Source of the DNA: an uncultured Roseovarius sp. | GTDB lineage: Bacteria; Pseudomonadota; Alphaproteobacteria; Rhodobacterales; Rhodobacteraceae | DNA length: 64,000 bases | Assembly: GCF_947489715.1 (NCBI RefSeq) | Contig: NZ_CANLER010000001.1 | Location: forward strand, 496,001 to 560,000 | Direction of reading: 5' to 3' | In this document: positions 12,348 to 24,706 of the stretch, in pieces | Numbering within the stretch: the stretch's first letter is position 1 | How the letters are laid out: the number at the start of each line of letters is the position of its first letter | Notes under the pieces: model-generated | What the model was told of the DNA's origin: nothing | The model's input: the letters and a program-made list of their open reading frames with translations, nothing else | Databases searched by the model: none | Position numbers and translations under genes: made by a program

Positions 12348-13226
12348 ATGAGCGTCTCTCCACCCCGTCCCAAAGGCCCGCCGCTGAATGCGTTGCGCGC
12401 CTTTGAAGCCGCCGCCCGTCTGGGCGGATTTGCCAATGCTTCCGAGGAGTTAGGGGTGACGCCCGGCGCGATTTCACAACATATCAAAGCCCTGGAGGAC
12501 TGGGTTGGTGTGGCACTGTTCGAGCGGCGTTCTCAGGGGGTGAAATTGACGGAAACCGGGGCCGATCTGGCGCCGGAATTCGGCCATGCCTTCGATGCGA
12601 TGGGCGCGGCGGTGCGGCATTTGCGGTCACGGGCAAAGAACCGGACGCTGCATATCGCGGCGCTGCCCAGCATCGCGCAGTTGTGGCTCAGCCCGCGTTT
12701 GCCGCAGGTACGCAAGGCCCTGCCCAATCTGGGTCTGTCCGTGTCGGCGACGGAATTACCCCCCAATCTGAGCCGCGAAATGTTTGATCTGAGCCTCTTT
12801 TTCAAGGCGCCGGAAGGTCATGGCCGCGAGGTGGTTCTGGCGCCGGATGTGATCACGCCGGTCTGTGCGCCCGAGCTGGCCAAGCAGTTGAAAACGCCAG
12901 AAGATCTGGTAGGGCAAACCTTGCTGCACGATGCGCTTTGGCCCGGTGACTGGGCGCTGTGGGCCAGGTCCGTTGGGGTGGATTTGCCGGGTCTGAACCG
13001 GGGGCCGAGTTTCAGCCTTTACGCGGTGGCGCTGGAAGAGGCGAAACATGGCGCGGGGGTGTTGATCGGGCACAAGGCGCTGGTGGCCGGGGCACTGGCC
13101 CGAGGCGAGCTGGTAGCGCCCTTCACGGCGCAGATCACCACGCCGAAATCGCTGGTGTTGGAAACCGCTGTCCGGCCCAAACCCGGGGACGATCTGGCCC
13201 GGATCACGGCATTGCTGGCCGGGTGA
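12348..13226 (+). CDS. LysR-family transcription regulator (GcvA-like)
   Basis: 292 residues. The winged helix-turn-helix is at about 15-75 (LNALRAFEAAARLGGFANASEELGVTPGAISQHIKALEDW). A periplasmic-binding-protein-like effector domain fills about 100-290. The GcvA subgroup signature includes the LFERRSQGVKLTE end of the HTH and a shortened effector domain. It is divergent from the SHMT-family gene, with 103 bases between starts, the classical layout for a LysR regulator controlling the neighbour. Glycine/serine-type metabolites are a reasonable guess for the effector. Confidence 0.88.
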   Translation: MSVSPPRPKGPPLNALRAFEAAARLGGFANASEELGVTPGAISQHIKALEDWVGVALFERRSQGVKLTETGADLAPEFGHAFDAMGAAVRHLRSRAKNRTLHIAALPSIAQLWLSPRLPQVRKALPNLGLSVSATELPPNLSREMFDLSLFFKAPEGHGREVVLAPDVITPVCAPELAKQLKTPEDLVGQTLLHDALWPGDWALWARSVGVDLPGLNRGPSFSLYAVALEEAKHGAGVLIGHKALVAGALARGELVAPFTAQITTPKSLVLETAVRPKPGDDLARITALLAG

Positions 13227-13233
13227 GCGGGTT

Positions 13234-13273
13234 TGTGTGAACTGTGTAAACAATGTACGCGGATTGTGTAAAC
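13234..13273 (+). repeat. Three TGTGTRAAC repeats upstream of the GTA
   Basis: TGTGTGAAC (13234-13242), TGTGTAAAC (13243-13251) and TGTGTAAAC (13265-13273). The first two are directly tandem (9-base step) and the third starts 22 bases after the second, about two helical turns. They lie just after the lysR stop and about 60-100 bases before the CtrA-like box, in the only long non-coding stretch upstream of the GTA cluster. A GTTGAC/GTCAAC inverted repeat (13294-13299 / 13310-13315) lies between them and the box. Probably operator DNA. Confidence 0.5.
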
Positions 13274-13335
13274 TCGACCCCTGACGCCGCACGGTTGACC
13301 TGACAATCCGTCAACGCGCTCCCCGCTTTCAGATC

Positions 13336-13350
13336 TTAACAGAAGGTTAA
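13336..13350 (+). promoter_or_regulatory. CtrA-type box (TTAA-N7-TTAA) in the GTA upstream region
   Basis: TTAA (13336-13339), seven bases, TTAA (13347-13350): an exact match to the alphaproteobacterial CtrA full-site consensus, about 180 bases before the g1 start. CtrA is required for GTA production in Rhodobacter and related bacteria, often through intermediates. A direct site here would be informative. Confidence 0.55.
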
Positions 13351-13532
13351 TTCGCGGGGCGGGTCCAAAACCATTCCCTAGCACCTCTGGTCAATATTGA
13401 ACGGGCTTTCCTGAAAACGGAAAAAACTTGTTGGCAGCGACGAATGCCGGTTTCGGGAGGTCCCGAAATCCGGCCTGCATCGCTGAAATGCGGAGGGGCA
13501 AACATCGCAATCCTATGGGGCAACGAGCAAAC

Positions 13533-13883
13533 ATGACTTTGATTACCCTCGATGAGGCACCAACAGGGCTCAGTACCTCAATCACGTCACTTGAGCGACA
13601 GCTTAACGACATGAGAGCCGATCTGGAGCTGCTCCAGGAAAAAATACGCGCCGGGGATCTGGATGAGTTGAAGAACTCGACCAGAGCCATATCCGACATC
13701 CGGCAGTGGTTGAAAATTGCAATTGAAGCGGAGGTTAACCTCAATGAACGAAACAAGCGCGACAAGGGTATCGTCCACGACTACGCACTCGACTTCGACA
13801 CGGCCCGAACTTCAATCGGGTGCCGCCTGGATCGTCTCAGAAGGGCCCGATGCACAGGAAGAGTTTCTAGATGCACTGGATGA
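13533..13883 (+). CDS. GTA g1 (small-terminase-like)
   Basis: 116 residues from the ATG at 13533 (MTLITLDEAPTGL). The first part is a coiled coil (LERQLNDMRADLELLQEKIRAG) followed by LKNSTRAISDIRQWLKIAIEAEVNLNER, a helix-rich segment fitting the GTA g1 family, the presumed small-terminase partner. The frame upstream to 13428 lacks such character. The last ~45 codons overlap the start of g2 in another frame; the C-terminal residues in the overlap (TSIGCRLDRLRRARCTGRV) look low-complexity basic. First gene of the GTA head module. Confidence 0.75.
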   Translation: MTLITLDEAPTGLSTSITSLERQLNDMRADLELLQEKIRAGDLDELKNSTRAISDIRQWLKIAIEAEVNLNERNKRDKGIVHDYALDFDTARTSIGCRLDRLRRARCTGRVSRCTG

Positions 13884-15153
13884 TGGCGAGCTGCTGGCGC
13901 TGCCGTACCTCTTCGAGTTCTGGGCGCTAGAACATCAGCTGCCCCCCGGTGGTGATTGGCGCAGCTGGGTCATCATGGGCGGGCGCGGGGCGGGCAAGAC
14001 GCGCGCCGGTGCCGAATGGGTGCGCAGCCAGATGGAAGGCGCGAAGCCGCTGGATCCGGGGCCGTGCCGGCGCATGGCGCTGGTGGGTGAGACCATCGAC
14101 CAGGTGCGCGAGGTGATGATTTTCGGCGAAAGCGGCATTCTGGCCTGTTCGCCGCCTGATCGCCGGCCCGAGTGGCAGGCGACGCGCAAGCGGCTGATCT
14201 GGCCCAATGGCGCGACCGCACAGGCGTTTTCGGCGCATGACCCTGAAGGGTTGCGCGGACCGCAGTTCGACAGCGCCTGGGTCGATGAGATGGCCAAGTG
14301 GAAAAAGGCGCGCGAGACCTGGGATATGCTGCAATTCGCGCTGCGCCTGGGCGATGACCCGCGGGTTTGCGTTACCACCACGCCGCGCAATGTGGGCGTC
14401 CTGAAAGAGTTGCTGGAAAGCCCGACCACGGTGGTGACAAGTGCGCCGACCGAGGCCAACCGGGCGTTCCTGGCCGAAAGCTTCTTGGACGAGGTGCGGG
14501 CGCGCTATTCCGGTACGCGGCTGGGGCGGCAGGAGCTGGATGGCATCCTGCTGGACGAGGCCGAGGGCGCGCTATGGTCGTCGAACCTGATCGAGAAGAT
14601 CCAGATCGACACCCCACCCGAGATGGACCGGATCGTGGTGGCGGTGGACCCGCCGGTGACGGGCCGATCGACATCGGATGAATGCGGGATCGTCGTCGTT
14701 GGGGCCCGTATGCAGGGGCCGGTGCAGGATTGGCGTGCTTACGTGCTGGCCGATTGCAGCATTGGTGCTGCCAGCCCCAACACCTGGGCCAACCGGGCGA
14801 TCAACGCGATGGTCGAACATGGGGCGGACCGGCTGGTGGCCGAGGTCAACCAGGGGGGCGATCTGGTATCGTCCGTCATTCGCCAGGTCGATCCGATGGT
14901 GCCGATCAAGGCGGTGCATGCCAGCCGGGGCAAGGTGGCCCGGGCTGAGCCGGTGGCGGCGCTTTATGAGCAGGGGCGTATCCTTCACCTGAAGGGGCTT
15001 GGAGAGCTGGAGGACCAGATGTGTGCAATGACCGCACAGGGGTTCGAGGGCAAGGGCAGCCCCGATCGTGTCGATGCGCTGGTCTGGGCCCTGACCGAGC
15101 TGATGATCGAACCGGCGGCCAAATGGCGACGCCCTCAGGTCCGCGCTGTCTGA
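13744..15153 (+). CDS. GTA large terminase (g2)
   Basis: 469 residues from the ATG at 13744, with GCGGAGG upstream. The ATPase domain shows Walker A GGRGAGKT at 79-86, the acidic Walker B end DSAWVDE with D181/E182, and the TTTPR coupling motif at 211-215. The nuclease half includes VVAVDPPVT and DGE-like acidic positions. The protein packages random host DNA into GTA heads. It overlaps g1 by 140 bases and is followed 22 bases on by a strong terminator. In RcGTA the portal gene follows directly; here it is 9.5 kb away. Confidence 0.95.
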   Translation: MNETSATRVSSTTTHSTSTRPELQSGAAWIVSEGPDAQEEFLDALDDGELLALPYLFEFWALEHQLPPGGDWRSWVIMGGRGAGKTRAGAEWVRSQMEGAKPLDPGPCRRMALVGETIDQVREVMIFGESGILACSPPDRRPEWQATRKRLIWPNGATAQAFSAHDPEGLRGPQFDSAWVDEMAKWKKARETWDMLQFALRLGDDPRVCVTTTPRNVGVLKELLESPTTVVTSAPTEANRAFLAESFLDEVRARYSGTRLGRQELDGILLDEAEGALWSSNLIEKIQIDTPPEMDRIVVAVDPPVTGRSTSDECGIVVVGARMQGPVQDWRAYVLADCSIGAASPNTWANRAINAMVEHGADRLVAEVNQGGDLVSSVIRQVDPMVPIKAVHASRGKVARAEPVAALYEQGRILHLKGLGELEDQMCAMTAQGFEGKGSPDRVDALVWALTELMIEPAAKWRRPQVRAV

Positions 15154-15174
15154 TACGGCTGCTAAAGGCATAGG

Positions 15175-15201
15175 AAAAAGGGCTCTTCGGGGCCCTTTTT
15201 T
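15175..15201 (+). terminator. Rho-independent terminator after GTA terminase
   Basis: AAAAAGGGC (15175-15183) / GCCCTTTTT (15192-15200) with an 8-base loop and further T, 22 bases after the g2 stop. This would end transcription of g1-g2 before the inserted DNA. Confidence 0.88.
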
Positions 15202-15450
15202 GTGTTGCGAGGCCGGGCTTGGCGGCGGAGCGCTTTGCGGCAAAAACCCCATAGGGTGGGTGAAACCCAGGCAGGACAACGCAGGAAAGAAGACGCTTGC
15301 CACGAAAATCCGCTTGAGAGCCTGACAGATTGCAACGGACGTCTTTTCAGCAATACTTTATCGGCATAGGTCGCCAAAAGGGCAACTTTGTCTGCTGTGA
15401 GCCCATTGAGTTCGTTTGATTGATAGATAAACTTGAGTAGGATGGTATCC

Positions 15451-15741
15451 ATGACTGCGCGCCCTAAATATATTCTTCATAGCCCACTGTCAGATGTAAC
15501 CCGCCTCGATACATTCATCGAAAACTGCCTCACTGAAGGCGTCTCTTTGATCGCAGTCTTTGGCTCGGGTAGCGCCGAACTCGAAGATATGATTGACGAA
15601 ATCATCGTTGGGGATGGTAAGGACGATAGTCGATTCATATGTACTACTTCGCATCCAAATGAGACCTTTGATGATGTTCTGTCATTCGTAGAGGCTTGGG
15701 AACTCAACGATGGCGGAGCGATAATTGAGGCTCGCCTTTAA
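15451..15741 (+). CDS. Small acidic protein of unknown function (possible immunity-type)
   Basis: 96 residues from the ATG at 15451 with AGGATGG upstream; ATG 15442 and TTG 15433 are alternatives. Composition is acidic (ELEDMIDEIIVGDGKDD) and the predicted pattern alternates strands and helices: KYILHSP, SLIAVFGSG, RFICTTSHPNE, AWELNDGGAIIEARL. The size, acidity and AT-richer codons, beside a broken coding fragment and another immunity-like gene, fit an orphan immunity protein, but no family was firmly recognised. Confidence 0.6.
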   Translation: MTARPKYILHSPLSDVTRLDTFIENCLTEGVSLIAVFGSGSAELEDMIDEIIVGDGKDDSRFICTTSHPNETFDDVLSFVEAWELNDGGAIIEARL

Positions 15742-15747
15742 TGGTAA

Positions 15748-15960
15748 TGGATAGTCGTACAAACGGCAGCTCCGTCCGCGTTCTTGCATACAGCGGTCCA
15801 AGCTTCGTACCCGAATGATTTATTGAAGGCGTCAATTCATCAGGGCAATTTTATTGCTGCTCAACAAATGGATATTGATGACATTCGATCCCTATTTGGA
15901 AAGAAATATGATAGCGCGATTGAACAAATGCTAAACGATACACAAGGGCTATTCCGTTGA
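15748..15960 (+). pseudogene. Orphan C-terminal coding fragment without start codon
   Basis: A 70-codon open stretch in the same frame as the gene before it, entered after two in-frame stops (15739 and 15745) and ending at TGA 15958. It reads WIVVQTAAPSAFLHTAVQAS and on to DIDDIRSLFGKKYDSAIEQM. There is no good start or ribosome-binding site. It is followed 20 bases later by an immunity-like gene, the layout of a displaced toxin C-terminus with its cognate immunity gene. The toxin idea is inference; it could be any gene remnant. Confidence 0.4.
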
Positions 15961-15980
15961 TCTGGAGAAGAGTGAATAAC

Positions 15981-16403
15981 GTGCCTTATGACATTCAACC
16001 ATTTATCGGTGCTGGTGATATTTGTTTCGGTATGACGCCTGAACAGGTCAGGAGTTGTTTAAGGGGCCGATATAGCACCTTCAAGAGAGGAGGTAGTACA
16101 GATGAACCTTCCGACCATTTTGAATCAATTGGCGTGATTGTTTCTTATAAGCTGCCTGGTTTGGTGAACACCATTGAGTTTTACACGCCCTCCAAGCCAG
16201 TGTTTGAAGGAGTAAATCTACTAGCCGTATCGTTTCGTGAGATGGTCGATTTTCTGCGAACAAAGGATATGAAATTGAGGGTAGAATTTGATGGGGTCTA
16301 TTCGGATGAAAATGGTATAGCTGCGTATGCGCCTCTTGCGAAGGATGATCCTGACTCGCCCGTTGAGAGCGTAATTGCTTTCGAAAAAGGTTACTATGAC
16401 TAG
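15981..16403 (+). CDS. Immunity-like small protein (GMTPEQVR family)
   Basis: 140 residues from a GTG at 15981 preceded by GGAGAAGAG; a TTG at 15957 and GTG at 15972 are alternatives. The pattern IGAGDICFGMTPEQVRSCL, then GVIVSYKLPGLVNTIEFYTPSKPVFEGVNLL and the AFEKGYYD end matches a widespread family of small proteins often found next to polymorphic-toxin loci. Codon use and composition are AT-richer than neighbours, suggesting transfer. Function as immunity is inferred from context, not shown. Confidence 0.6.
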   Translation: MPYDIQPFIGAGDICFGMTPEQVRSCLRGRYSTFKRGGSTDEPSDHFESIGVIVSYKLPGLVNTIEFYTPSKPVFEGVNLLAVSFREMVDFLRTKDMKLRVEFDGVYSDENGIAAYAPLAKDDPDSPVESVIAFEKGYYD

Positions 16404-16454
16404 TGATATGGCAAGCGTAGAGAGGGTGCTAACCCACCATTTAGTTTTCATCCG

Positions 16455-16667
16455 TTAGCTCACCACTGCGATCACCCAAGCCGCTATGCATAGAAACGGC
16501 CAAATGCATAACAGTGTTTGAAAGCTCCTCACCATCGGCCACACAGACAATCTTTCGAAACCCCACGCGCCGCCGCCCCCAAAAACCACCATACCCGCTA
16601 TCGCCGCTCCCAGCACGGCAAACACCGTCGACGAAAACCCACACAGCAATCCAATCAACGGCAGCAA
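16455..16667 (-). CDS. Possible small membrane protein
   Basis: 70 residues from a TTG at 16667. Two hydrophobic helices are predicted (LIGLLCGFSSTVFAVLGAAI and LLCIWPFLCIAAWVIAVV). It is the only protein-like frame in the 395 bases between the neighbouring genes. No good ribosome-binding site was seen and the start is weak, so it may be chance. Confidence 0.3.
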   Translation of the reverse strand: MLPLIGLLCGFSSTVFAVLGAAIAGMVVFGGGGAWGFERLSVWPMVRSFQTLLCIWPFLCIAAWVIAVVS

Positions 16668-16798
16668 AGTCCGCTCAGCGGACCTTAAGGGGCAATCCTC
16701 TGGGTCTTATTTTGATCGACACCATAAGGTGAACGGTTCGCGCCTGAAGCTGCACCATTGGTCTTGTATCACATTGTTGCGGGCACCAAGATGTAGCC

Positions 16799-17389
16799 AT
16801 GCAACAAATGAATGAGATCACCACTTACTTCGAGTTTGTACGTCCGTCTTACAACAACCGAGATGCAGGCCATGATTTGCGCCATATTGCTCGGATAATT
16901 GAGCGGCTGGATGACCTTTCGGTGGGTTGTCATCCCGCACCAACGCGTCACCTCTTGTTCTTCCTTGCCGCGTTTCACGGGCTCGGAGAAAAGCTGCAAG
17001 AAGACTCTGATTTCCGTCAGTTGACCGAGGATTTCTTGAGGCAACTTGGGTGGAAAAGCGATGAAATTCCAGGGGCTTTTGTTGCGCTACAAAGGCATCT
17101 TTCAGCGCCGGAAACAACCGAAGAGATGATAGTTCACGATGCAAATTTCTTTGAGGTGACTGGACCATTTGGAATTGCAAAAGCGTTTACCGTTGGCGGG
17201 CACTTCAACCAAACATACGAACGCACGTTGGAGATTTTCGAGGAGAATGTTGAAAAGTTGGTTTTTCGAACACCGGTTGGACGCAGCGCTTATCACAATC
17301 GAAAAGACTACGCGCGTGCCTTTATCGTGGAGCTTCGCGAAGAACTGAAGCTAAAGCGCTTCGATGAGAACCTTTCACTGGCTGAATGA
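16799..17389 (+). CDS. HD-superfamily-like protein (degenerate metal site)
   Basis: 196 residues. The order of motifs follows small predicted HD phosphohydrolases of the YpgQ/yeast-like group: GHDLRHIARIIERL near 24-37 (usually YHNxxH), FLAAFHGLG near 58-66 (usually WFHD), RHLSAPETTEEMIVHDANFFEVTG near 103-126 (usually H...DADL). The second histidine-aspartate pair has become HG, so catalysis is doubtful. AT-richer codons than the flanking GTA genes. It is monocistronic inside the insert, convergent with the phosphatase gene. A nucleotide-binding or hydrolase role is inference. Confidence 0.6.
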   Translation: MQQMNEITTYFEFVRPSYNNRDAGHDLRHIARIIERLDDLSVGCHPAPTRHLLFFLAAFHGLGEKLQEDSDFRQLTEDFLRQLGWKSDEIPGAFVALQRHLSAPETTEEMIVHDANFFEVTGPFGIAKAFTVGGHFNQTYERTLEIFEENVEKLVFRTPVGRSAYHNRKDYARAFIVELREELKLKRFDENLSLAE

Positions 17390-17422
17390 CGACGTCACCC
17401 CTTGCTGCGGTCTCCCAATCTC

Positions 17423-18208
17423 TCAGCCGTGCAGAACGTTCATGGTCTTCTCCATCAACGCCTTATCTCCGGCGGCCAGAACATTGCCGTTCATATCGAA
17501 AGACAGGGCATCCCCGTTCCAATCGGTGACAAGGCCGCCAGCCCCGGTAATGACCGCTGCCGGGGCGTAAATATCAAAGGCATCCAGCCCCCCATCCAGC
17601 GCCAGATCGACCCGTCCCGAGGCCAGAACCCCGTAGGAATAACAGGACCCGCCATATTGCACGTATTGAACCTGCTCGCGGACGCGGTCGAACTTTGCCT
17701 GTTCGGACGCGCTCATGAAATCGCGGTTGCTGCAGGTCGCATAGGCGGTTGCCATCGATGCGCAGGACCGGACCCGGATGGGATTGCCGTTGAACCGGGC
17801 AAATGACCCTGCAACCCCGACCCAGCGGTCCGAGGTCATCGGGTGTTCGATCACCCCCACAAAGGGCGCGCCGTTCCAGGCCAGCCCGATCAGGGAGCCG
17901 TAAACCGGTATCCCGGCGACAAGGGCCGCCGTGCCGTCGATCGGGTCCAGCACCCAGACAAATTCAGCGTCGGTGTTGGTGTTCTCAAATTCCTCCCCCA
18001 GAATGCCATGATCGGGATAGGTGTCCTGGATCATCTCGCGCAGCGCCACCTCGACCGCCTTGTCGGTCGCGGTGACGAATGAGGCATCCTGCTTGATCTC
18101 CACATCCGGCGCGCGCTGGCTGGCATCAAGCAGCATCGACCGGCTGCGATCCGCCAGCTTTTCGGCAAAGGACAGGAATTCCGCGTGGGGGGGAAGGTCG
18201 GACATCAT
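17423..18208 (-). CDS. Inositol-monophosphatase-family phosphatase
   Basis: 261 residues. Metal and phosphate site motifs are present: GEEF near 70-73, VLDPIDGTAALVAGIPVYG near 85-103, and the C-terminal FDIYAPAAVITGAGGLVTDW, where family members have WDxAAxxxIxxxAGG (W replaced by F and D kept). The closest functional relatives are HisN-type histidinol phosphatases and other small-sugar phosphatases; specificity cannot be told. It is the last gene of a six-gene minus-strand unit, 11 bases after the ABC ATPase, suggesting it dephosphorylates a metabolite of the imported compound. Confidence 0.88.
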   Translation of the reverse strand: MMSDLPPHAEFLSFAEKLADRSRSMLLDASQRAPDVEIKQDASFVTATDKAVEVALREMIQDTYPDHGILGEEFENTNTDAEFVWVLDPIDGTAALVAGIPVYGSLIGLAWNGAPFVGVIEHPMTSDRWVGVAGSFARFNGNPIRVRSCASMATAYATCSNRDFMSASEQAKFDRVREQVQYVQYGGSCYSYGVLASGRVDLALDGGLDAFDIYAPAAVITGAGGLVTDWNGDALSFDMNGNVLAAGDKALMEKTMNVLHG

Positions 18209-18219
18209 GCGAGTTACCC

Positions 18220-18966
18220 TTAGTGTTTGAGGATCTGACTGAGGAAGAGCTTGGTGCGTTCGTTCCTGGGCGCGTTGAAGAAAGTTTCCGGTTCCGCCTC
18301 TTCGACGATCTCTCCCGTATCCATGAAGATCACCCGATCCGCGACCGAGCGGGCAAAACCCATTTCATGGGTGACACAGATCATCGTCATGCCGTCGCGC
18401 GCCAGATCAACCATCACTTCCAGCACTTCGTTGATCATCTCGGGATCAAGCGCCGAGGTGGGTTCATCAAACAGCATGACCTCGGGCTTCATGCAGAGCG
18501 CGCGGGCAATGGCGACGCGCTGTTGCTGTCCACCCGATAGCTGGATTGGATATTTCCCGGCCTGTTCGGGGATTTTTACCCGTTCAAGGTAATGCATCGC
18601 CACATCGCGGGCCTCAGCTTTGGGCGTCTTGCGTACCAGTTTCTGGGCCAGCATCAGGTTGTTGAGGATGGTCATGTGCGGAAAGAGGTTGAAGCTTTGA
18701 AACACCATGCCAACCTCGCGGCGCACGGCGTTGAGATCCTTGAGATCATCGGTCAGCTCGATCCCGTCGATGATGATCCTGCCCTGATCATGTTTTTCCA
18801 GCCGGTTTATACAGCGGATCATGGTGGATTTTCCCGATCCGGACGGGCCGCATACCACGATACGTTCACCCTTGGAGACGTTCAGATTGATGCCCTTGAG
18901 CGCCTGAAACGTGCCGAAATGCTTGCCCACCTCCAGCATTTGAATAAGCGGTTCCGGGGATGTCAT
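18220..18966 (-). CDS. Polar amino acid-type ABC transporter, ATP-binding protein
   Basis: 248 residues from the ATG at 18966. Walker A GPSGSGKS at 40-47, signature [15 protein letters not shown], Walker [15 protein letters not shown] and the H-loop CVTHEMGFA are intact. It belongs to the GlnQ/HisP branch ([13 protein letters not shown], then [11 protein letters not shown]). One base separates it from the upstream permease stop, so the unit is tightly coupled. It energises uptake of an amino-acid-like solute across the inner membrane. Confidence 0.95.
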
Positions 18967-18967
18967 G

Positions 18968-19663
18968 TCAGCCCTCTCTTTCGGCATAGCGGCCAAGGTA
19001 ACGTTCGATACGGGCCAGCAGTTTCTGGATAAAGAATGTGAGGATCATGTAGATGATCGCCAGGGAGATGAAAATTTCATAGGGGGCGTATGTCTGTGCC
19101 ACAATCGTGCGGGCGATACCGGTCATGTCCATCAATGTGATCGTGCTGGCCAGCGCCGTGGATTTCAACAGGCTGATGATATCGTTACCATAGGCGGGCA
19201 GGGCCAGTCGCGTCGCAATCGGCGTGGTCAGGTAGATGAACCGCTGCGGCTTGGAGAGGCCCAGCGCCTCGCCTGCTTCGAGCACGCCGCGATCCACGCC
19301 CAGCACGCCGCCGCGCAGGATTTCCGAGACATAGGCCCCGGTGTTCAGGGTCAGCGCCACGATGGCACAGCCGAACGGGTCGCGGAAGATCGGCCAGAGA
19401 AAGCTATCGCGGATGAAATCCAGCTGCGGAAAGCCGTAATAGACGATGAAGATCTGCACCAGTATCGGCGTGCCGCGAAATACGTAGATATAGACCTGCG
19501 CGGGCCACGACAGGTACCATTTGCCGCTGATCCGCATCAGCATGAGGCCAATCGCCAATATCAACCCCAGAATGGCCGACAGGATCAACAGCTGAAAGGT
19601 CAGCCCGATGCCCACCAGCATTTTTGGCAGTGCTTCGGCGATCAGGGACAGATCAAAGCTCAT
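18968..19663 (-). CDS. Polar amino acid-type ABC transporter permease (second)
   Basis: 231 residues from the ATG at 19663, whose ATGA overlaps the stop of the first permease by 4 bases. Family pattern: [15 protein letters not shown], then [24 protein letters not shown] (the EAA loop that docks the ATPase) and [19 protein letters not shown]. About five transmembrane helices. The open frame continues upstream to 19906 but that part lies within the first permease gene and is not used. Confidence 0.94.
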
Positions 19664-20355
19664 GTCCCGGTCCTCAGCGTGCGCTGGCCATAGCGTTCCA
19701 GCGCCATGACCGTCAGCGTGATCACCGTGGAAAATCCCAGATAGATCAGCCCGACCACGATGTACATGGTGAAGGGTTTGCCGGTGGACCCAATCGCCTG
19801 TTTGGCGACAAACAATGTCTCGTTCAGACCGATGATGGAAATCAGCGCCGTATCCTTGATCAGCGAAAGCATGTGATTGCCGAACGCCGGTAGCGCCAGC
19901 CGCCACATCTCGGGGATGCGCACGTAGATAAAGGTCTGCAGGTTCGACATGCCCAGCGCCCGCGCGGCCTCGATACTGCCGGGTTTCACGCCCAGAAACG
20001 CGCCGCGAAAGGTTTCGGTCGCATATGAGCCGACGATCAGCGCAATCGCGATTGTCCCGGCCCAGAAGGGTGGCACATCGAGAAACTTGACTTCGGGGTC
20101 AAAGATCTGGGCAATCGCGGTTAGCGTGATGGCTGAGCCGAAATAGAGCAGCAGGATCACAAGGATTTCGGGCGTGCCGCGAAATATCACGGTATAGGCG
20201 CCGGCTATTTTCTGGGCGATGCGGTTGTTGGAAAGTTTTGCCGCGGCGCCGACCAGGCCGAATAGGACCATCAGCACCAGCGACGCCAGAAACACTTTCA
20301 GAACAACGACCGACCCCCAAAAGAAGTCATCCCACCACCCGGTCAAGACTTCCAC
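19660..20355 (-). CDS. Polar amino acid-type ABC transporter permease (first)
   Basis: 231 residues from a GTG at 20355 with AAGGGA upstream. It shows the HisM/HisQ pattern RGTPEILVILLLYFG and the EAA loop GAFLGVKPGSIEAARALGMS, with LPAFGNHMLSLIKDTALIS. It forms a heterodimer with the next permease. 73 bases separate it from the substrate-binding protein gene. Confidence 0.94.
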   Translation of the reverse strand: MEVLTGWWDDFFWGSVVVLKVFLASLVLMVLFGLVGAAAKLSNNRIAQKIAGAYTVIFRGTPEILVILLLYFGSAITLTAIAQIFDPEVKFLDVPPFWAGTIAIALIVGSYATETFRGAFLGVKPGSIEAARALGMSNLQTFIYVRIPEMWRLALPAFGNHMLSLIKDTALISIIGLNETLFVAKQAIGSTGKPFTMYIVVGLIYLGFSTVITLTVMALERYGQRTLRTGT

Positions 20356-20428
20356 AGCATGTCCCTTCGATTAACTGAATTCGGCAGAGCCGGTAGCGCG
20401 CCGGGAAGCACGCTACCGCAGGAGACGT

Positions 20429-21235
20429 TCAGCTGTCGCCCCATTCCTCGTTGTGGATCGGGAAGGGGAAGTACTTAAGTGCGTATTCGGTCAGCTTGCC
20501 ATCGTTGATCAGCTGCTTGATCGCACCGTTCAGGCGCTCTTTCAGCTCGGGCTGACCCTGCCGCAGGCCGATGCCGACACCGATGCCGAAAAATTCAACT
20601 TCGCTGATCGCCGGGCTTATGAATTCGAACCCGCTGCCCTCTTCCTGCGTCAGGAACCGCAAATGCGCCTTCATCGGGTTGGTCATGATCGCATCGACGC
20701 GGCCATTGACCAGGTCCAGATACATCGGCTCGGACCCGTCATAAAGCACGATATCCGCATCCGGCAGCTTGGCGTTGAACCAGCTTTCATAAGTTGAGGC
20801 GCGCTCCAGCCCGATCCGCAGACCGGCGAAATTTTCCGCAACCGGATTGCCGGATGGATCAAAGAGATTCAGATCCTGCCCCGATTTGCCCACGATCCGA
20901 CCGACGCTGTCCCGGTAAGGGCCAGAGAAATCTATCTTTTCCAGTCGGCTTTCGGTGATCGACATCGACGCCACGATCAGGTCGAACTTGTTGGCCAGAA
21001 GTGCTGGGATCATCCCGTCCCATTGCTGACAGACAAATTCTAGCTCGGCCCCGATGATCTCGGCGACACCCCGGGCGACATCGACGTCATAGCCCGCCAG
21101 TTCGCCTGATTCCGTGCGGTAGTTGAACGGCGCATAGGTGCATTCCATGCCCACGCGCAGTTTCTCGGCCGAGGCAGGCGCGCCCAGTGCCAGCACCGCC
21201 AATGCGGTTGCCAATAGTCTGGTTCCAAAGTTCAT
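20429..21235 (-). CDS. Periplasmic amino acid-type substrate-binding protein
   Basis: 268 residues. The signal peptide MNFGTRLLATALAVLALGAP ends ASA/EKLRVG. The mature part is a family-3 solute-binding protein: VGMECTYAPFNYRTESGELAGYDVDVARGVAEIIG, FDLIVASMSITESRLEKIDFSGPY and FGIGVGIGLRQGQPELKERLNGAI. The start at 21235 is fixed by the signal peptide. Ligand unknown. It is the second gene of the uptake unit, 37 bases after the PLP enzyme. Confidence 0.93.
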   Translation of the reverse strand: MNFGTRLLATALAVLALGAPASAEKLRVGMECTYAPFNYRTESGELAGYDVDVARGVAEIIGAELEFVCQQWDGMIPALLANKFDLIVASMSITESRLEKIDFSGPYRDSVGRIVGKSGQDLNLFDPSGNPVAENFAGLRIGLERASTYESWFNAKLPDADIVLYDGSEPMYLDLVNGRVDAIMTNPMKAHLRFLTQEEGSGFEFISPAISEVEFFGIGVGIGLRQGQPELKERLNGAIKQLINDGKLTEYALKYFPFPIHNEEWGDS

Positions 21236-21272
21236 TTTTGTCTCCTCCTTGTCAGAATATGTCGGCCGGTTT

Positions 21273-22526
21273 CTATCCGGCTTCTGTGACAGTTTGTGAT
21301 ATCTTCTCCAGCGTCCGATCAATTTCGTCCGCAGTATTGTAATGCGCCAGTCCGACCCGCACGACGCCCTCGTCCAGCGGCAGCCCCAGGGCACGGGTCG
21401 GTTCATAGGCATAGTTATGGCCGTGCCAGACATGGATGCCAGCCCGGCCCAGGGCAGATGCGATCGTGTCGGGCGACTGGCCGTCATGCCGGAATGACAC
21501 CGTGGGCACGCGCGCACCGATGCGGTTGGGGTTGACGATACCATAGATCGAAATCCCCGGAATATCCTGCAACCCTGCGATAAAGCGGTTGGTCAGCGGC
21601 TCCTCATAGGCGCGAGACGCCTCATAGGCGCGCTCGATCAGCGCGCGGCCTTCGCCGCTGCCGCCACAGGCCTGACCCAGTGCTTCGAAATAGCGCATCG
21701 TCGCCGACAGCCCGGCCAGCAATTCATATTGCGGCGTGCCCATCTCGTACCGGTCGGGGCTGGCGTCGGACACGCAGCGACCCTTGTAGGGATAAAGCGC
21801 ATTCAGCAGCGCCTCGCGCCCCCAGGCGATGCCCATATGCGGCCCGAAAAACTTGTATGAAGAACAGGCCAGGAAATCGCAGCCCAGCGCTTGCACATCG
21901 ACCAGGTGATGTGGCGCTAGCTGCACCGCATCGACATAGACCCATGCACCCGCCTCCTGCGCGAGGCGCGTCAGGCGCTTCACGTCATTGATCGACCCGG
22001 TGAGGTTGCTGGCATAGTTCAGCGCCACCAGCCGCGTCCTGTTGGTCAGCTGCGCCGCCAGATCCTCGGGTTCGACCTGCCAGCTGTCGCGGTTGAAATC
22101 GACCCAGCGAATTTCCAGCCCCTTGTCCTTGGCAATCTCCAGCCAGGGCCCGACATTGCCCTCATGCTCCATCCGGCTGATCACGATCTGATCGCCGGGC
22201 TGGAACCCGTGGCAGATGCTGCGCGACATGTGAAAGGTCAGACAGGTCATGCTTTGGCCGATCACGATCTCGGCGGCAGACCCTGCGCCCAGAAACGTCG
22301 CCATATCCGCATGCGCCTGTTCCCAGACACGATCCGTTGCAACACTGGTGCAGAACCTTCCCCCGGCATTGCTGGAATCATGCAAAAGGTAATGGCTGAT
22401 CGCGTCGACCACGGTTTTTGGCACCTGGGTGCCCGCCGGATTGTCCAGATAGGTCCGCGCCGCGCCATCATCCGTCACCGAAAGCGATGGGAAGCGGTCA
22501 CGGATCTCTGAGATCGGAAATTCCAT
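21273..22526 (-). CDS. Cysteine-desulfurase-like class V aminotransferase (PLP)
   Basis: 417 residues from the ATG at 22526 (ATG 22538 possible). Schiff-base lysine K225 in CSSYKFFGPHMG and cofactor residues D199/Q202 in YVDAVQLAPH place it in the SufS/CsdA-like family, in the group annotated as cysteine-desulfurase-like proteins. The catalytic cysteine loop typical of true desulfurases (RxGHHCA) is replaced near the C-terminus by HVWHGHNYAYEPTRALG, with no cysteine. It may thus be a lyase or transaminase on another amino acid. First gene of the minus-strand uptake unit, divergent from a LuxR regulator. Confidence 0.85.
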   Translation of the reverse strand: MEFPISEIRDRFPSLSVTDDGAARTYLDNPAGTQVPKTVVDAISHYLLHDSSNAGGRFCTSVATDRVWEQAHADMATFLGAGSAAEIVIGQSMTCLTFHMSRSICHGFQPGDQIVISRMEHEGNVGPWLEIAKDKGLEIRWVDFNRDSWQVEPEDLAAQLTNRTRLVALNYASNLTGSINDVKRLTRLAQEAGAWVYVDAVQLAPHHLVDVQALGCDFLACSSYKFFGPHMGIAWGREALLNALYPYKGRCVSDASPDRYEMGTPQYELLAGLSATMRYFEALGQACGGSGEGRALIERAYEASRAYEEPLTNRFIAGLQDIPGISIYGIVNPNRIGARVPTVSFRHDGQSPDTIASALGRAGIHVWHGHNYAYEPTRALGLPLDEGVVRVGLAHYNTADEIDRTLEKISQTVTEAG

Positions 22527-22697
22527 AGCGGTCAACATCCCCGGTGGCGGCCAGATTTCCCGCCGTTTTGCCCAAGTGTCGGTCAAAAACCGCATTGGCC
22601 CTATCATCCCAAAGGATGAGGCGCGCCAGAGGTGACTTGATCGAAGAGGGATTGTGTTTGTTAATGGCAGCGCAGAATTGTCTGGACGATGCGCCCC

Positions 22698-23531
22698 ATG
22701 AAACATGAAACGCCCGATGCCGCTTACCCGGCGCTGACCGACGCGATGATAATTTCACTTATTGATCTGCTGGGCCGCGACAGCTTTGCCCCCGATCTTG
22801 CCGCCACGCTCGAGGCGCAGTTCGGCTACAGCCATTTTCACATCTTTCTCTATAGCGAGAAACTGGCCCCGGCGGCCCTGGCTAGCTGCCCCGATCCCAC
22901 GACCTATGAGCGCGGGCTGCAAAACTATATTAACTATACTTACGTCATCAATCCCGCCTACCGGGCCTACCGGATGGGCAAACGGGCCGGGGTCTACATG
23001 ATCTCGGATTTCATCCAGAATGACAGCCAGACATTCATCGACACACATGATGTCGAGGTGCATATCGACGATTCCGAGCCGATCGGCTACCGCACCCCTG
23101 GCTGGCCCAAGAACATGGCCGAGGTCATCATCCTGATCAACCTGCCGAACAAGACGACCCTCGATTTCAGCTTTCTGACACCGCTTGGCAGCCAGCAGAC
23201 CGGGGAATGCAAAGTGTCGCTTGAACGTCTGTTTCCGTTTCTCAACAGCGTGCTGCTGCGCCAGTTCGCGATCAATCCTGGCAGCCTTGACGCGGAACAC
23301 AGCGTCGTCGGGCAGGAAGACCGGTTTCACGACTTCGGCGGCGATGTCCTGACCATCCGTGAACGCGAGATCGTGCAGTTGATCCTGGTCGGGCACAGCA
23401 GCAATTCGATCTCGCTCAATCTTGGAATCTCCATGCCAACGGTCAAAACACATCGCCGCAACATCTACAGCAAGTTGCAAATCTCCTCGCAGGCCGAATT
23501 GTTCAGCCTGTTTTTGCTGCACCTCAAATAG
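22698..23531 (+). CDS. LuxR-type regulator of the uptake cassette
   Basis: 277 residues from the ATG at 22698 (ATG 22689 is in frame just upstream, with poor spacing). The N-terminal ~200 residues have no recognised sensor domain, but contain HFHIFLYSEKLAPAALASCP and NYINYTYVINPAYRAYRMG, resembling LuxR-type sensors of small molecules. The C-terminal HTH (about 213-277) is canonical: LTIREREIVQLILVGHSSNS, then MPTVKTHRRNIYSKLQISSQ. It is divergent from the PLP enzyme, with starts about 170 bases apart, so it probably controls the six-gene unit in response to its substrate. Confidence 0.85.
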   Translation: MKHETPDAAYPALTDAMIISLIDLLGRDSFAPDLAATLEAQFGYSHFHIFLYSEKLAPAALASCPDPTTYERGLQNYINYTYVINPAYRAYRMGKRAGVYMISDFIQNDSQTFIDTHDVEVHIDDSEPIGYRTPGWPKNMAEVIILINLPNKTTLDFSFLTPLGSQQTGECKVSLERLFPFLNSVLLRQFAINPGSLDAEHSVVGQEDRFHDFGGDVLTIREREIVQLILVGHSSNSISLNLGISMPTVKTHRRNIYSKLQISSQAELFSLFLLHLK

Positions 23532-23905
23532 GGGAAACGCGGAACGGCAAGCCAAATCTACCGATCCCGTAGTATTTTTGGCTTTCTCGACCCATCTGAA
23601 AGCTTTGGCGTTCAGTCAACATACAGTTGTCAGATCAGCCAAGGCGCTCCTTCTGTTGGCGATAGCGGTCATTGGTTCGAATGCAGCGACTGAAATGTAC
23701 GCCTTACAATCAATTGGTCTTTGTATTTGCGGCGCAGTGAACGAACGGCGACGCGACTACCTTGGGTATTGATCGAATGTGCCTGGTGGATTTTGCGGGG
23801 CAATCTTGAAGATTACGGAGCAAAGTGAAAGCTGGTTTTCAGATTTCCCGAATTATTCGGAAATGAATGTTATTATGAGATTGCATTTTTTTAGGAGACT
23901 TAACG
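23532..23905. other. Non-coding, AT-rich stretch with a leader hairpin
   Basis: 374 bases without a convincing gene. At 23843-23864 ATTT-C-CCGAA-TTA-TTCGG-AAAT forms a nine-base-pair hairpin with one bulged C, 41 bases before the next start codon. It could be a leader structure or an operator. A clear Shine-Dalgarno AGGAG follows at 23893. No transposase or repeat was seen. Confidence 0.4.
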
Positions 23906-24268
23906 ATGGTTCAGAATAATTTTTCGATTAGTCGGCGGCAACTGGCAAGTGTCGGCATGCTGGCCGGACTGGGAACTTTAGCATGCGCGCCACTTTCAAG
24001 CCCGGCTTCTGCACATAGCGGAGGCTTGACGACACTGATTGCTCTGATGACAAGTTCTTTGAAATCAACATCAGAAACGGCAACCAGCACGGTCGAGAAC
24101 CAGAGAAGCCTTGTAGAACAGTTGTCGAACCAAGGTGAACTTTCGCAAGAGGTTGAGCGTTTGATCGACGTGCAGTTTCAGACACTTGGTGAGCTAAGCC
24201 AAGCATTGGTGAACATGGATTCCCTCCTTAAAGAGATCGCAAAAACGGTCAATCAGGACTGCGGATAA
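23906..24268 (+). CDS. Tat-type secreted or lipoprotein-like small protein (hypothetical)
   Basis: 120 residues with AGGAG 8 bases before the ATG. The N-terminus FSISRRQLASVGMLAGLGTL has a twin-arginine motif before a hydrophobic stretch and ends in APLSSPASA/HSGG; an LAC sequence at the end of the hydrophobic run could instead be a lipobox. The mature part is a helical, Ser/Thr-rich coiled coil (SLKSTSETATSTVENQRSLV, ELSQEVERLIDVQFQTLGEL). AT-richer codons than the GTA genes. No family recognised; last gene before the second terminator and the GTA portal. Confidence 0.65.
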   Translation: MVQNNFSISRRQLASVGMLAGLGTLACAPLSSPASAHSGGLTTLIALMTSSLKSTSETATSTVENQRSLVEQLSNQGELSQEVERLIDVQFQTLGELSQALVNMDSLLKEIAKTVNQDCG

Positions 24269-24706
24269 TTAAGCACACAGACTTCTGAATTAGGTGCTGC
24301 AAACAGGAAGGGATTGGTTTCCCAACTGGTGTTTGCACTCTGCGTTACGTGTATTTCACAAGACTTTTCGGCACGATATGTTCGGCGTGGCGCGACTTTC
24401 CCTGAACCGGTCATTCGACCGAGCAACCAGTTCGCCGGAACGCATTTTTTTCGATAACCAGCTGGAAAACCAGACAAAACCCTGTTTGAGGGTTGTTTCT
24501 TTGCTATGCAGAAATTGGGAGGCGCGACCGGGAACTTCATTACGCGGGTGGGTTTTGAGGTAGTGATCGCTGGGCGCGTCAGGGCGGTCTCTGGCAGGTC
24601 GAATTCATTGCGCGCGGTCTGGTTCACTTTCTTTAAACGTTTGGGGGTCTGATGCACGCCAAGCGGGGAATGGCCCGGGTGAGGCATGACGAAGGAGCAT
24701 CAGCGG
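24269..24706. other. Junction between the insert and the GTA portal gene
   Basis: 438 bases. It holds a terminator-like hairpin (24478-24502) and a 48-codon ATG frame (24506-24652, MQKLGGATGNFITRVGFEVV and on) with no good ribosome-binding site, probably chance. The last 200 bases, between the hairpin and the portal start, must contain any promoter for the g3-g15 module, but no clear -35/-10, CtrA box or TGTGTAAAC repeat was seen there. Confidence 0.4.
24478..24502 (+). terminator. Terminator-like hairpin before the GTA portal
   Basis: AACCCT (24478-24483) / AGGGTT (24489-24494) with a 5-base loop followed by GTTTCTTT. The stem is short, so activity is uncertain. If real, it separates transcription of the insert from the g3-g15 module. 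Confidence 0.5.

What the first reader, a model, noticed from the sequence alone, without database searches (positions are those of the whole stretch)
13234..13350. Candidate GTA control region: three TGTGTRAAC repeats plus a CtrA-type box
Three 9-base repeats (two tandem, one two helical turns further), an inverted repeat GTTGAC/GTCAAC and a perfect TTAA-N7-TTAA site occur in the only long gap before g1. CtrA is genetically required for GTA production in Rhodobacter, often indirectly; a direct site would link GTA expression to the cell-cycle/quorum network in this lineage. The repeats could be the site of the GafA-type activator.
Basis: partly seen in the sequence, partly recalled or inferred. 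Interest (0 to 1): 0.7.

Follow-up and report, generated by a model that had tools for sequence, protein, structure and literature searches.

The report
Dispersed repeat beside a GTA switch
The three short repeats before the gene-transfer-agent cluster are one copy of a repeat scattered dozens of times through this marine bacterium's genome, while the neighbouring TTAA box is a conserved part of the cluster's control region.

Summary
The motifs are real, but they are two unrelated things. (A) The repeats (13233-13276) are one copy of a ~44-bp dispersed element with at least 30 places in this genome (E<=0.001). It matches in 11 of 40 genomes of the genus (own included) and weakly in 1 of 197 other genera. 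Species have their own dialects on a 9-9-13-bp frame of TGTAC-like subsites. Copies favour stop codons and convergent gaps over divergent promoters; this one lies 7 bp behind a LysR stop. In ispD the element is spelled in codons rather than inserted. It is not a GafA site; I infer a binding array for an unidentified protein. (B) The TTAA-N7-TTAA box (13336-13350) is conserved before g1: 37 of 78 regions at <=1 mismatch against 4.5 expected. In relatives it sits mostly 48-49 or 37-38 bp from a conserved promoter, which a covarying intrinsic terminator follows 52-58 nt later. The window lacks that promoter and T tract. CtrA binding is plausible but untested; CtrA did not bind the R. capsulatus GTA promoter. 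The relatives' leader predicts antitermination.

The parts
12348..13226 (+). LysR-type regulator gene immediately upstream; its stop codon lies 7 bp before the first repeat
   Evidence: ORF; Pfam HTH_1 and LysR_substrate. In relatives L030 and L103 a different gene end stands here.
13233..13276 (+). One copy of the dispersed Roseovarius element: subsites TGTGTGAAC, TGTGTAAAC, TGTACGCGGATTG, TGTGTAAAC (9-9-13 frame)
   Evidence: Model R1 hit G000:C1:509233-509276, E 1.9e-7; PWM 42.2 bits at 13232, next best in the window -1.3. This copy (as L008) was among the sequences both were built from; the independent evidence is the pattern searches.
13294..13315 (.). Inverted repeat GTTGAC-N10-GTCAAC; no conservation seen
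   Evidence: not seen in the relatives
13336..13350 (+). TTAA-N7-TTAA box, conserved upstream of g1 in Roseovarius and other roseobacters; CtrA-type consensus
   Evidence: 37 of 78 regions at <=1 mismatch vs 4.5 expected
13370..13382 (+). ACCATTCCCTAGC, tentative -10 region, resembling sequence in L030 and L103 only
   Evidence: alignment; weak, no -35 recognised (best promoter match has 9 mismatches)
13435..13485 (+). Strong stem-loop in the g1 leader, without a T tract, roughly where relatives have the intrinsic terminator
   Evidence: I1, I4, folding 13425-13500: -33.8 kcal/mol, z -2.58, 3 of 200 shuffles as good
13533..13883 (+). g1 (GTA small terminase by position; no Pfam match)
13744..15153 (+). 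g2, GTA large terminase
   Evidence: Terminase_6N and Terminase_6C

Best explanation
The stretch holds two unrelated features. (A) 13233-13276 is a copy of a genus-restricted dispersed element that belongs to the 3' end of the LysR gene, not to the GTA promoter. Shown: tens of copies per genome in element-bearing species, a 9-9-13 subsite frame, species dialects at inherited positions, placement behind stop codons and between convergent genes, and a copy spelled out in ispD codons rather than inserted. Inferred: the element is a binding array for an unidentified, accessory sequence-specific DNA-binding protein whose specificity drifts between species, so the sites of a genome drift together; it acts at gene 3' ends or on chromosome organisation rather than as a promoter operator. 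(B) 13336-13350 is the conserved upstream activator box of the GTA cluster. Shown: enrichment before g1 and, in relatives, preferred spacings of 48-49 or 37-38 bp to the promoter, about one helical turn apart. Inferred: phosphorylated CtrA, or a protein with a similar TTAA dyad preference, binds there and helps RNA polymerase.
For: Dispersed family: 23 matches at <=3 mismatches of the core, backward control 1; 30 distinct places at E<=0.001 with model R1 and 47 matches at E<=0.05 (some may be both-strand duplicates of one copy, and 20 of the model's 100 sequences come from this genome). Dialects: orthologous copies 69% identical on average against 79% for paralogues of the same genome, paralogues closer in 40 of 49 directed comparisons; in the 10 groups that share genes on both sides, 73% against 79%, 24 of 31. 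Context: 40 convergent, 54 codirectional, 8 divergent gaps versus 19, 73, 33 control gaps of the same loci, Fisher convergent-vs-divergent p=2e-6; 49 of 65 left-hand genes that read towards the element stop within 15 bp of it. ispD: codons rewritten in place. RAYT transposase (PF01797): none in element-bearing G000, G051, G062, G066, G060. Box; of 37 spacings counted, 22 are 48-49 bp and 8 are 37-38 bp.
Against: No binding protein was identified for (A), and no binding was measured for (A) or (B). 9 of 49 directed comparisons (7 of 31 in the strict set) go against the dialect pattern. Inverted repeats within the element also covary above shuffles, so a structural role is not excluded. The element also lies before g1 in a second lineage (L034, L036, L037), there behind mltG, so recurrence at GTA clusters is somewhat more than I would expect by chance (not computed). 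The 78 upstream regions are related to each other, so counts are not independent. The window lacks the conserved promoter, so the spacing cannot be checked there. Many relatives have TTAA-N6-GTAA, one base off the CtrA spacing. CtrA did not bind the R. capsulatus GTA promoter (PMC6363796).
Confidence: 0.6

Rival explanations
1. One reading: the repeats are the operator of a GafA-type GTA activator and, with a direct CtrA site, form one control region.
For: They lie in the g1 upstream gap; an element is also found before g1 in L034, L036 and L037. GafA has a DnaA-like N-terminal domain (PMC9638019 passages), and TGTGTAAAC resembles a DnaA box (recalled, not tested).
Against: 30 or more places in the genome, enriched at convergent gene ends; not found before g1 in L030 and L103, nor in element-rich relatives L044 and L064; 260-299 bp from g1, whereas the GafA probe lies 76-125 bp upstream.
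Confidence: 0.03
2. The element is a selfish or REP/MITE-like repeat spread by a transposase, with no host function.
For: Many copies; 3'-end and convergent placement as in REP elements (recalled); patchy presence, with no match in the close relative G061; 72 matches in G033, several with equal scores. G078 has one strong and one weak Y1 transposase match, and G045 and G071 a weak one each.
Against: No PF01797 match in element-bearing G000, G051, G062, G066 and G060, while G061, G064 and G079, without a match to the element, have one or more; G070, G072, G073, G074 and G076 have neither as far as tested. In ispD codons were rewritten in place. Copies at inherited positions change dialect.
Confidence: 0.25
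3. The TTAA box is bound by something other than CtrA, such as a GafA domain or another activator.
For: 27 of 78 regions match TTAA-N6-TTAA at <=1 mismatch beside 37 of 78 for N7 (the sets may overlap), and many relatives read TTAA-N6-GTAA, whereas the R. capsulatus CtrA sites TTAAC-N6-GTAAC and GTAAC-N6-TTAAC (PMC6363796 passages) correspond to a 7-base gap between the four-base halves. CtrA did not bind the RcGTA promoter; a GafA N-terminal fragment bound promoter fragments on both sides of the core (PMC9638019 passages).
Against: TTAA-N7-TTAA is the conserved alphaproteobacterial CtrA consensus (PMC9437464 passages), and the window's site is a perfect match.
Confidence: 0.4
4. The element works as RNA in 3' untranslated regions (stability or termination).
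For: 49 of 65 left-hand genes read into it from within 15 bp; subsites can pair and covary above shuffles.
Against: Two mutually exclusive foldings both score above shuffles, as expected of repeated palindromic subsites; no T tract in the consensus; for 29 of 110 copies both flanking genes read from the other strand; the four searched ispD copies are antisense to the gene.
Confidence: 0.1

Closest known systems
REP/BIME elements of enterobacteria and pseudomonads (recalled)
   Same: Short, dispersed, intergenic, next to gene 3' ends, species-specific consensus
   Different: No consistent link to Y1/RAYT transposases here; repeated 9-9-13 subsites rather than one hairpin; one position spelled within ispD codons
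Chromosome-organising site sets (matS/MatP, SlmA, Noc; recalled)
   Same: Tens of palindromic sites over the chromosome for one presumed protein
   Different: Spread over both halves: 11 of 24 (G051) and 9 of 22 (G078) sites lie in the origin-proximal half, taking parS as the origin; 4-subsite array; strong link to stop codons
CtrA box of gafA and ctrA promoters in R. capsulatus (PMC6363796, passages)
   Same: TTAA-type dyad upstream of a GTA-related promoter, conserved across species
   Different: Here before the structural cluster itself, where CtrA did not bind in R. capsulatus; many relatives have a gap one base shorter
Caulobacter GTA promoter with GafY, GafZ, IHF and terGTA (PMC11150451, passages)
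   Same: GTA cluster with a promoter and a terminator that must be read through
   Different: In roseobacter relatives the terminator is an intrinsic hairpin 52-58 nt behind the -10, before g1, not behind the first gene; the window's own leader lacks the T tract

Membership tests
CtrA binding site | TTAA-N7-TTAA dyad | tested here: met
   13336-13350 perfect
CtrA binding site | Conserved at the same promoter in relatives | tested here: met
   37 of 78 vs 4.5 expected; but many relatives have the N6 form, and the window's promoter is not recognisable
CtrA binding site | Bound by CtrA~P | not testable with these tools
   needs EMSA or ChIP
GafA operator (repeats) | Confined to GTA, gafA and lysis promoters | tested here: not met
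   30 distinct places at E<=0.001, mostly at gene 3' ends
GafA operator (repeats) | Lies in the core promoter, 76-125 bp upstream of g1 as in RcGTA | tested here: not met
   260-299 bp upstream of g1
REP/BIME element | Dispersed, intergenic, 3'-end associated | tested here: met
REP/BIME element | Associated RAYT (Y1) transposase | tested here: not met
   no PF01797 match in G000, G051, G062, G066, G060; matches in G078 (strong), G045 and G071 (weak)
REP/BIME element | Forms one conserved hairpin | tested here: inconclusive
   two exclusive foldings both score above shuffles
Inserted mobile repeat (MITE, RPE) | Insertion lengthens the target | tested here: not met
   ispD: 6 of 7 element-bearing rows have the same span (23) as 9 of 16 element-free rows; G000 is two codons shorter (21); the other element-free rows have 19-22
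Q-type promoter-terminator leader (lambda-like; recalled) | Promoter followed closely by an intrinsic terminator before the structural genes | tested here: not met
   met in 45 of 47 relatives with the promoter, but not in the window

The most novel reading that the evidence does not exclude
Roseovarius carries an undescribed chromosome-wide site system: 4-subsite DNA arrays placed behind stop codons, read by an accessory DNA-binding protein whose specificity drifts so fast that species have their own dialects at inherited positions, with selection strong enough to rewrite IspD codons.
Probability: 0.35. Interest if true: 0.8.

Novelty: new variant of a known kind. Interest (0 to 1): 0.6.

Why it matters
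A dispersed element whose sites change dialect together while keeping their places, even inside the coding sequence of ispD, would be a natural experiment in co-evolution of a DNA-binding protein with its genome, and the protein is still to be found. Separately, the conserved box-promoter-terminator leader of roseobacter GTA clusters makes an open question directly testable: whether GafA is an antiterminator, which the authors of the Caulobacter work name as a possibility (PMC11150451 passages).

Tried and rejected
Rejected: repeats as GTA operator. Consistent RAYT/REP link. Insertion into ispD: I first read the ispD copy as an in-frame insertion like Rickettsia palindromic elements (note); two searches showed no lengthening. 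Replication polarity: 15 co-directional to 9 opposite in G051 and 16 to 6 in G078, with parS taken as origin and the terminus opposite; weak. Origin or terminus exclusion: none. One conserved hairpin in the element: inconclusive. Rfam on 12600-14000: no match up to E 1. TerL in phage records: 121 records, all under 60% identity, none followed. A search for the inverted repeat used a 12-base gap, which is wrong; one search gives 10. Model R1 over 198 family genomes and the genus-wide counts may miss foreign dialects, and the family search used stricter filters.

Rows dropped: L129 (G065) left out of the element sets as a chance match; 100 of the 109 references were aligned for model R1, L194 having been left out before; 17 of 21 flank-sharing groups, without weakly similar members, went into the dialect test, one of them (L018/L182) sharing its gene on opposite sides, and the strict recount uses 10 groups; 78 of 81 upstream regions had enough sequence, L095, L105 and L107 not; of 50 hairpins, L031 was filtered out by position and L044 and L104 left out by judgement, 47 aligned; 30 of 38 promoter matches were fetched. 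Gene contexts come from my own codon-usage gene caller, not annotation. Element copies in ispD of G062, G067 and G077, and a decayed one in G063, were recognised by eye. The hairpin structure counted was written by me from row L032, which favours it over the slid controls.

Full report
What was checked. The window belongs to a genome of 5.03 Mb in 40 contigs. By its large terminase it is a Roseovarius: best hits are Roseovarius sp. MMSF_3359 (L103, 92%) and R. aestuarii (L030, 90%).

The repeats are a dispersed element. A pattern of two TGTGTRAAC within 30 bp gave six matches at five separate places in the genome, backward control 0. The core TGTACGCGGATTGTGTAAAC has 23 matches at <=3 mismatches, backward control 1, and by eye all stand in a longer similar block. 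The commonest units are [TTGCAACTG][TGTAAACTG][TGTACGCGGATTG][TGTACAC]. In some copies (e.g. L009, L010) the left two units are inverted. Related genomes hold the same frame with other letters, for example [TGTACAGGT][TGTACAGCC][TGTACGCGGGTTA][TGTACAC] in G045. A sequence-only model from 100 copies, 20 of them from this genome (R1), gives at E<=0.05 47 matches in the window's genome, 27-55 in six others, 11-12 in two, 1-4 in three, and none in six of the 18 genomes searched. Some matches are both-strand duplicates of one copy, as the coordinates show for G051. At E<=0.001 the window's genome has 30 distinct places. In an even draw of 40 genomes of the genus, own included, 11 have a match at E<=0.001; nine of these have 9-72 matches and two have one. 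In 198 genomes of the family, one per genus, one genome besides the own has one weak match, with stricter filters. G061, in the same three-genome clade as G000 and G060 (support 96/96), has none although they have 47 and 11.

Where it sits. With my own gene caller, of 110 elements 40 lie between convergent genes, 54 between codirectional ones, 8 between divergent ones, 7 inside genes, and one lacks a right-hand gene. Control gaps in the same loci are 19, 73 and 33; in the window and the 80 GTA loci 24, 206 and 53 (Fisher convergent against divergent, same loci, p=2e-6). Of 65 copies with a left-hand gene reading towards them, 49 start within 15 bp of its stop codon; on the right side 4 of 69 do. 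In the window the copy starts 7 bp behind the LysR stop. This is not the usual placement of a promoter operator.

Dialects and ispD. Grouping copies by similar flanking genes gave 21 groups across genomes. In 17 of them orthologous copies average 69% identity against 79% for other copies of the same genome, and paralogues are closer in 40 of 49 directed comparisons. Restricted to the 10 groups with genes shared on both sides, the figures are 73% against 79%, 24 of 31. Orthologues are still slightly more alike than non-orthologous copies of the two genomes (73.3% against 70.2%, 22 of 28), so some common descent shows. One inherited position is inside ispD, behind the HDxAR motif: G000, G060, G066 and G078 by search, and G062, G067 and G077 by eye. 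From HDxAR to the APAL/APAV motif, 6 of these 7 rows have 23 residues, as do 9 of 16 element-free rows and the decayed G063; G000 has 21 and the other element-free rows 19-22. So the element was not simply inserted there; it brings in tyrosine codons. I infer selection on the DNA and a site-specific binding protein that drifts with its sites. I did not find it. A Y1/RAYT transposase is not a consistent partner: none in G000, G051, G062, G066 and G060; one strong match in G078; weak ones in G045 and G071; and matches in G061, G064 and G079, where model R1 finds no element.

GTA relation of the repeats. In PWM scans of the 80 related loci (shuffled maximum 3.4 bits), the element scores before g1 only in L034 (45.7 bits), L036 (18.2) and L037 (15.4); another hit, L050 at 16.7 bits, lies inside the terL coding region. 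L035 shows a diverged trace by eye (1.9 bits, not above chance). In L034-L037 it lies behind what I read as mltG. Element-rich relatives such as L044 (G071) and L064 (G078) show none there. So it is a neighbour, not a fixed component.

The TTAA box. In 78 upstream regions (window and 77 relatives) TTAA-N7-TTAA with <=1 mismatch occurs in 37 against 4.5 in dinucleotide shuffles and 9 for the AATT control; perfect sites 6 against 0.2. N6 gives 27 against 4.6 (AATT control 8), while N5, N8 and N9 give 3-5 against 4.5-5.0. The regions are related, so they are not independent. TTAA-N7-TTAA is the CtrA consensus (PMC9437464 passages); R. capsulatus sites TTAAC-N6-GTAAC and GTAAC-N6-TTAAC (PMC6363796 passages) have the same seven-base gap, whereas many relatives here read TTAA-N6-GTAA. 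In R. capsulatus GafA, not CtrA, binds the GTA promoter (PMC6363796 section 13), so a direct CtrA site would be a lineage difference. In D. shibae predicted CtrA sites at gafA and other GTA-associated genes are reported (PMC6473078 passages), and GTA expression is slightly lower in ctrA, cckA and chpT mutants (PMC4046655 passages).

The leader of relatives. Downstream of the box many relatives carry TTGAC-N3-GCG-N2-CGGT-N-T-N2-CGTATAGG: 47 of 78 regions at <=5 mismatches, where the reverse strand never does better than 7. Of these 47, 45 have a GC-rich hairpin with a T tract starting 52-58 nt behind the -10. Of 37 box-to-promoter spacings counted, 22 are 48-49 and 8 are 37-38 bp. A separate scan finds a terminator-like hairpin in 50 of 78 regions and in 0 of 78 on the reverse strand; one of the 50 (L031) lies further upstream than the rest. 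The hairpin covaries: 9 of 11 pairs change on both sides, 30 cells against 6.1 in shuffles, 0 of 500 shuffles as high. As a test from outside, the promoter pattern alone (<=3 mismatches) was sought in 198 family genomes, one per genus: 38 matches in 35 genomes against 25 backward-control matches, so the tally itself is weak. But of the 30 loci fetched, 20 have a large-terminase match starting 367-481 bp downstream on the same strand, and 18 of those 20 have the hairpin and T tract 51-56 nt behind the -10; of the 10 without terL in the locus, one has it. This layout predicts that GTA transcription must pass a terminator before g1. Caulobacter GafZ is presented as an antiterminator related to the C-terminal part of GafA, and its authors write that GafA might have previously unrecognised antitermination activity (PMC11150451 passages). 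My searches found no report of this leader or of the element in the open library; subscription papers are largely not covered. Of the papers cited I saw passages, and one section of PMC6363796.

The window's own leader. Window, L030 and L103 have no recognisable copy of that promoter (9 mismatches each) and none of the three is among the 50 regions with a terminator-like hairpin, but they keep the box at <=1 mismatch. The window has a strong stem-loop at 13435-13485. How g1 is started here is therefore open.

Noticed in passing
L032, L033, L041, L058, L064 and others, upstream of g1: Conserved promoter followed 52-58 nt later by a covarying intrinsic terminator before g1 in 45 of 47 regions with the promoter; recovered independently in 18 of 20 terL-linked loci, each from another genus. 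Suggests antitermination of GTA clusters.
   Followed up: partly
L032, L041, L042, L046, L050, L067 leaders: Between promoter and terminator lies a short reading frame such as MLDEMGKRPRG*, overlapping the hairpin; the start TGCTGGACGA is found in 18 of 78 regions, and 6 of these 18 stop at that place.
   Followed up: no
window 15154-24685: About 9.5 kb of other genes (by reading translations only: amino-acid ABC transporter parts, an inositol-monophosphatase-like protein, a class V aminotransferase-like protein, a LuxR-type regulator) separate the GTA large terminase from the portal gene. In 67 of 80 relatives a portal match lies within the flank; in 13 it does not, though some flanks are cut short.
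   Followed up: partly
ispD, e.g. L013, L126, L148, L189: The dispersed element is spelled within ispD codons without lengthening the protein, giving AYxxY-type residues.
   Followed up: yes
   Followed up: no
window 13435-13485: Strong stem-loop just upstream of g1, roughly where relatives have the intrinsic terminator, but without T tract.
   Followed up: partly
L050:4202-4251: A 16.7-bit match to the dispersed element inside the terL coding region of a relative, possibly another codon-embedded copy.
   Followed up: no
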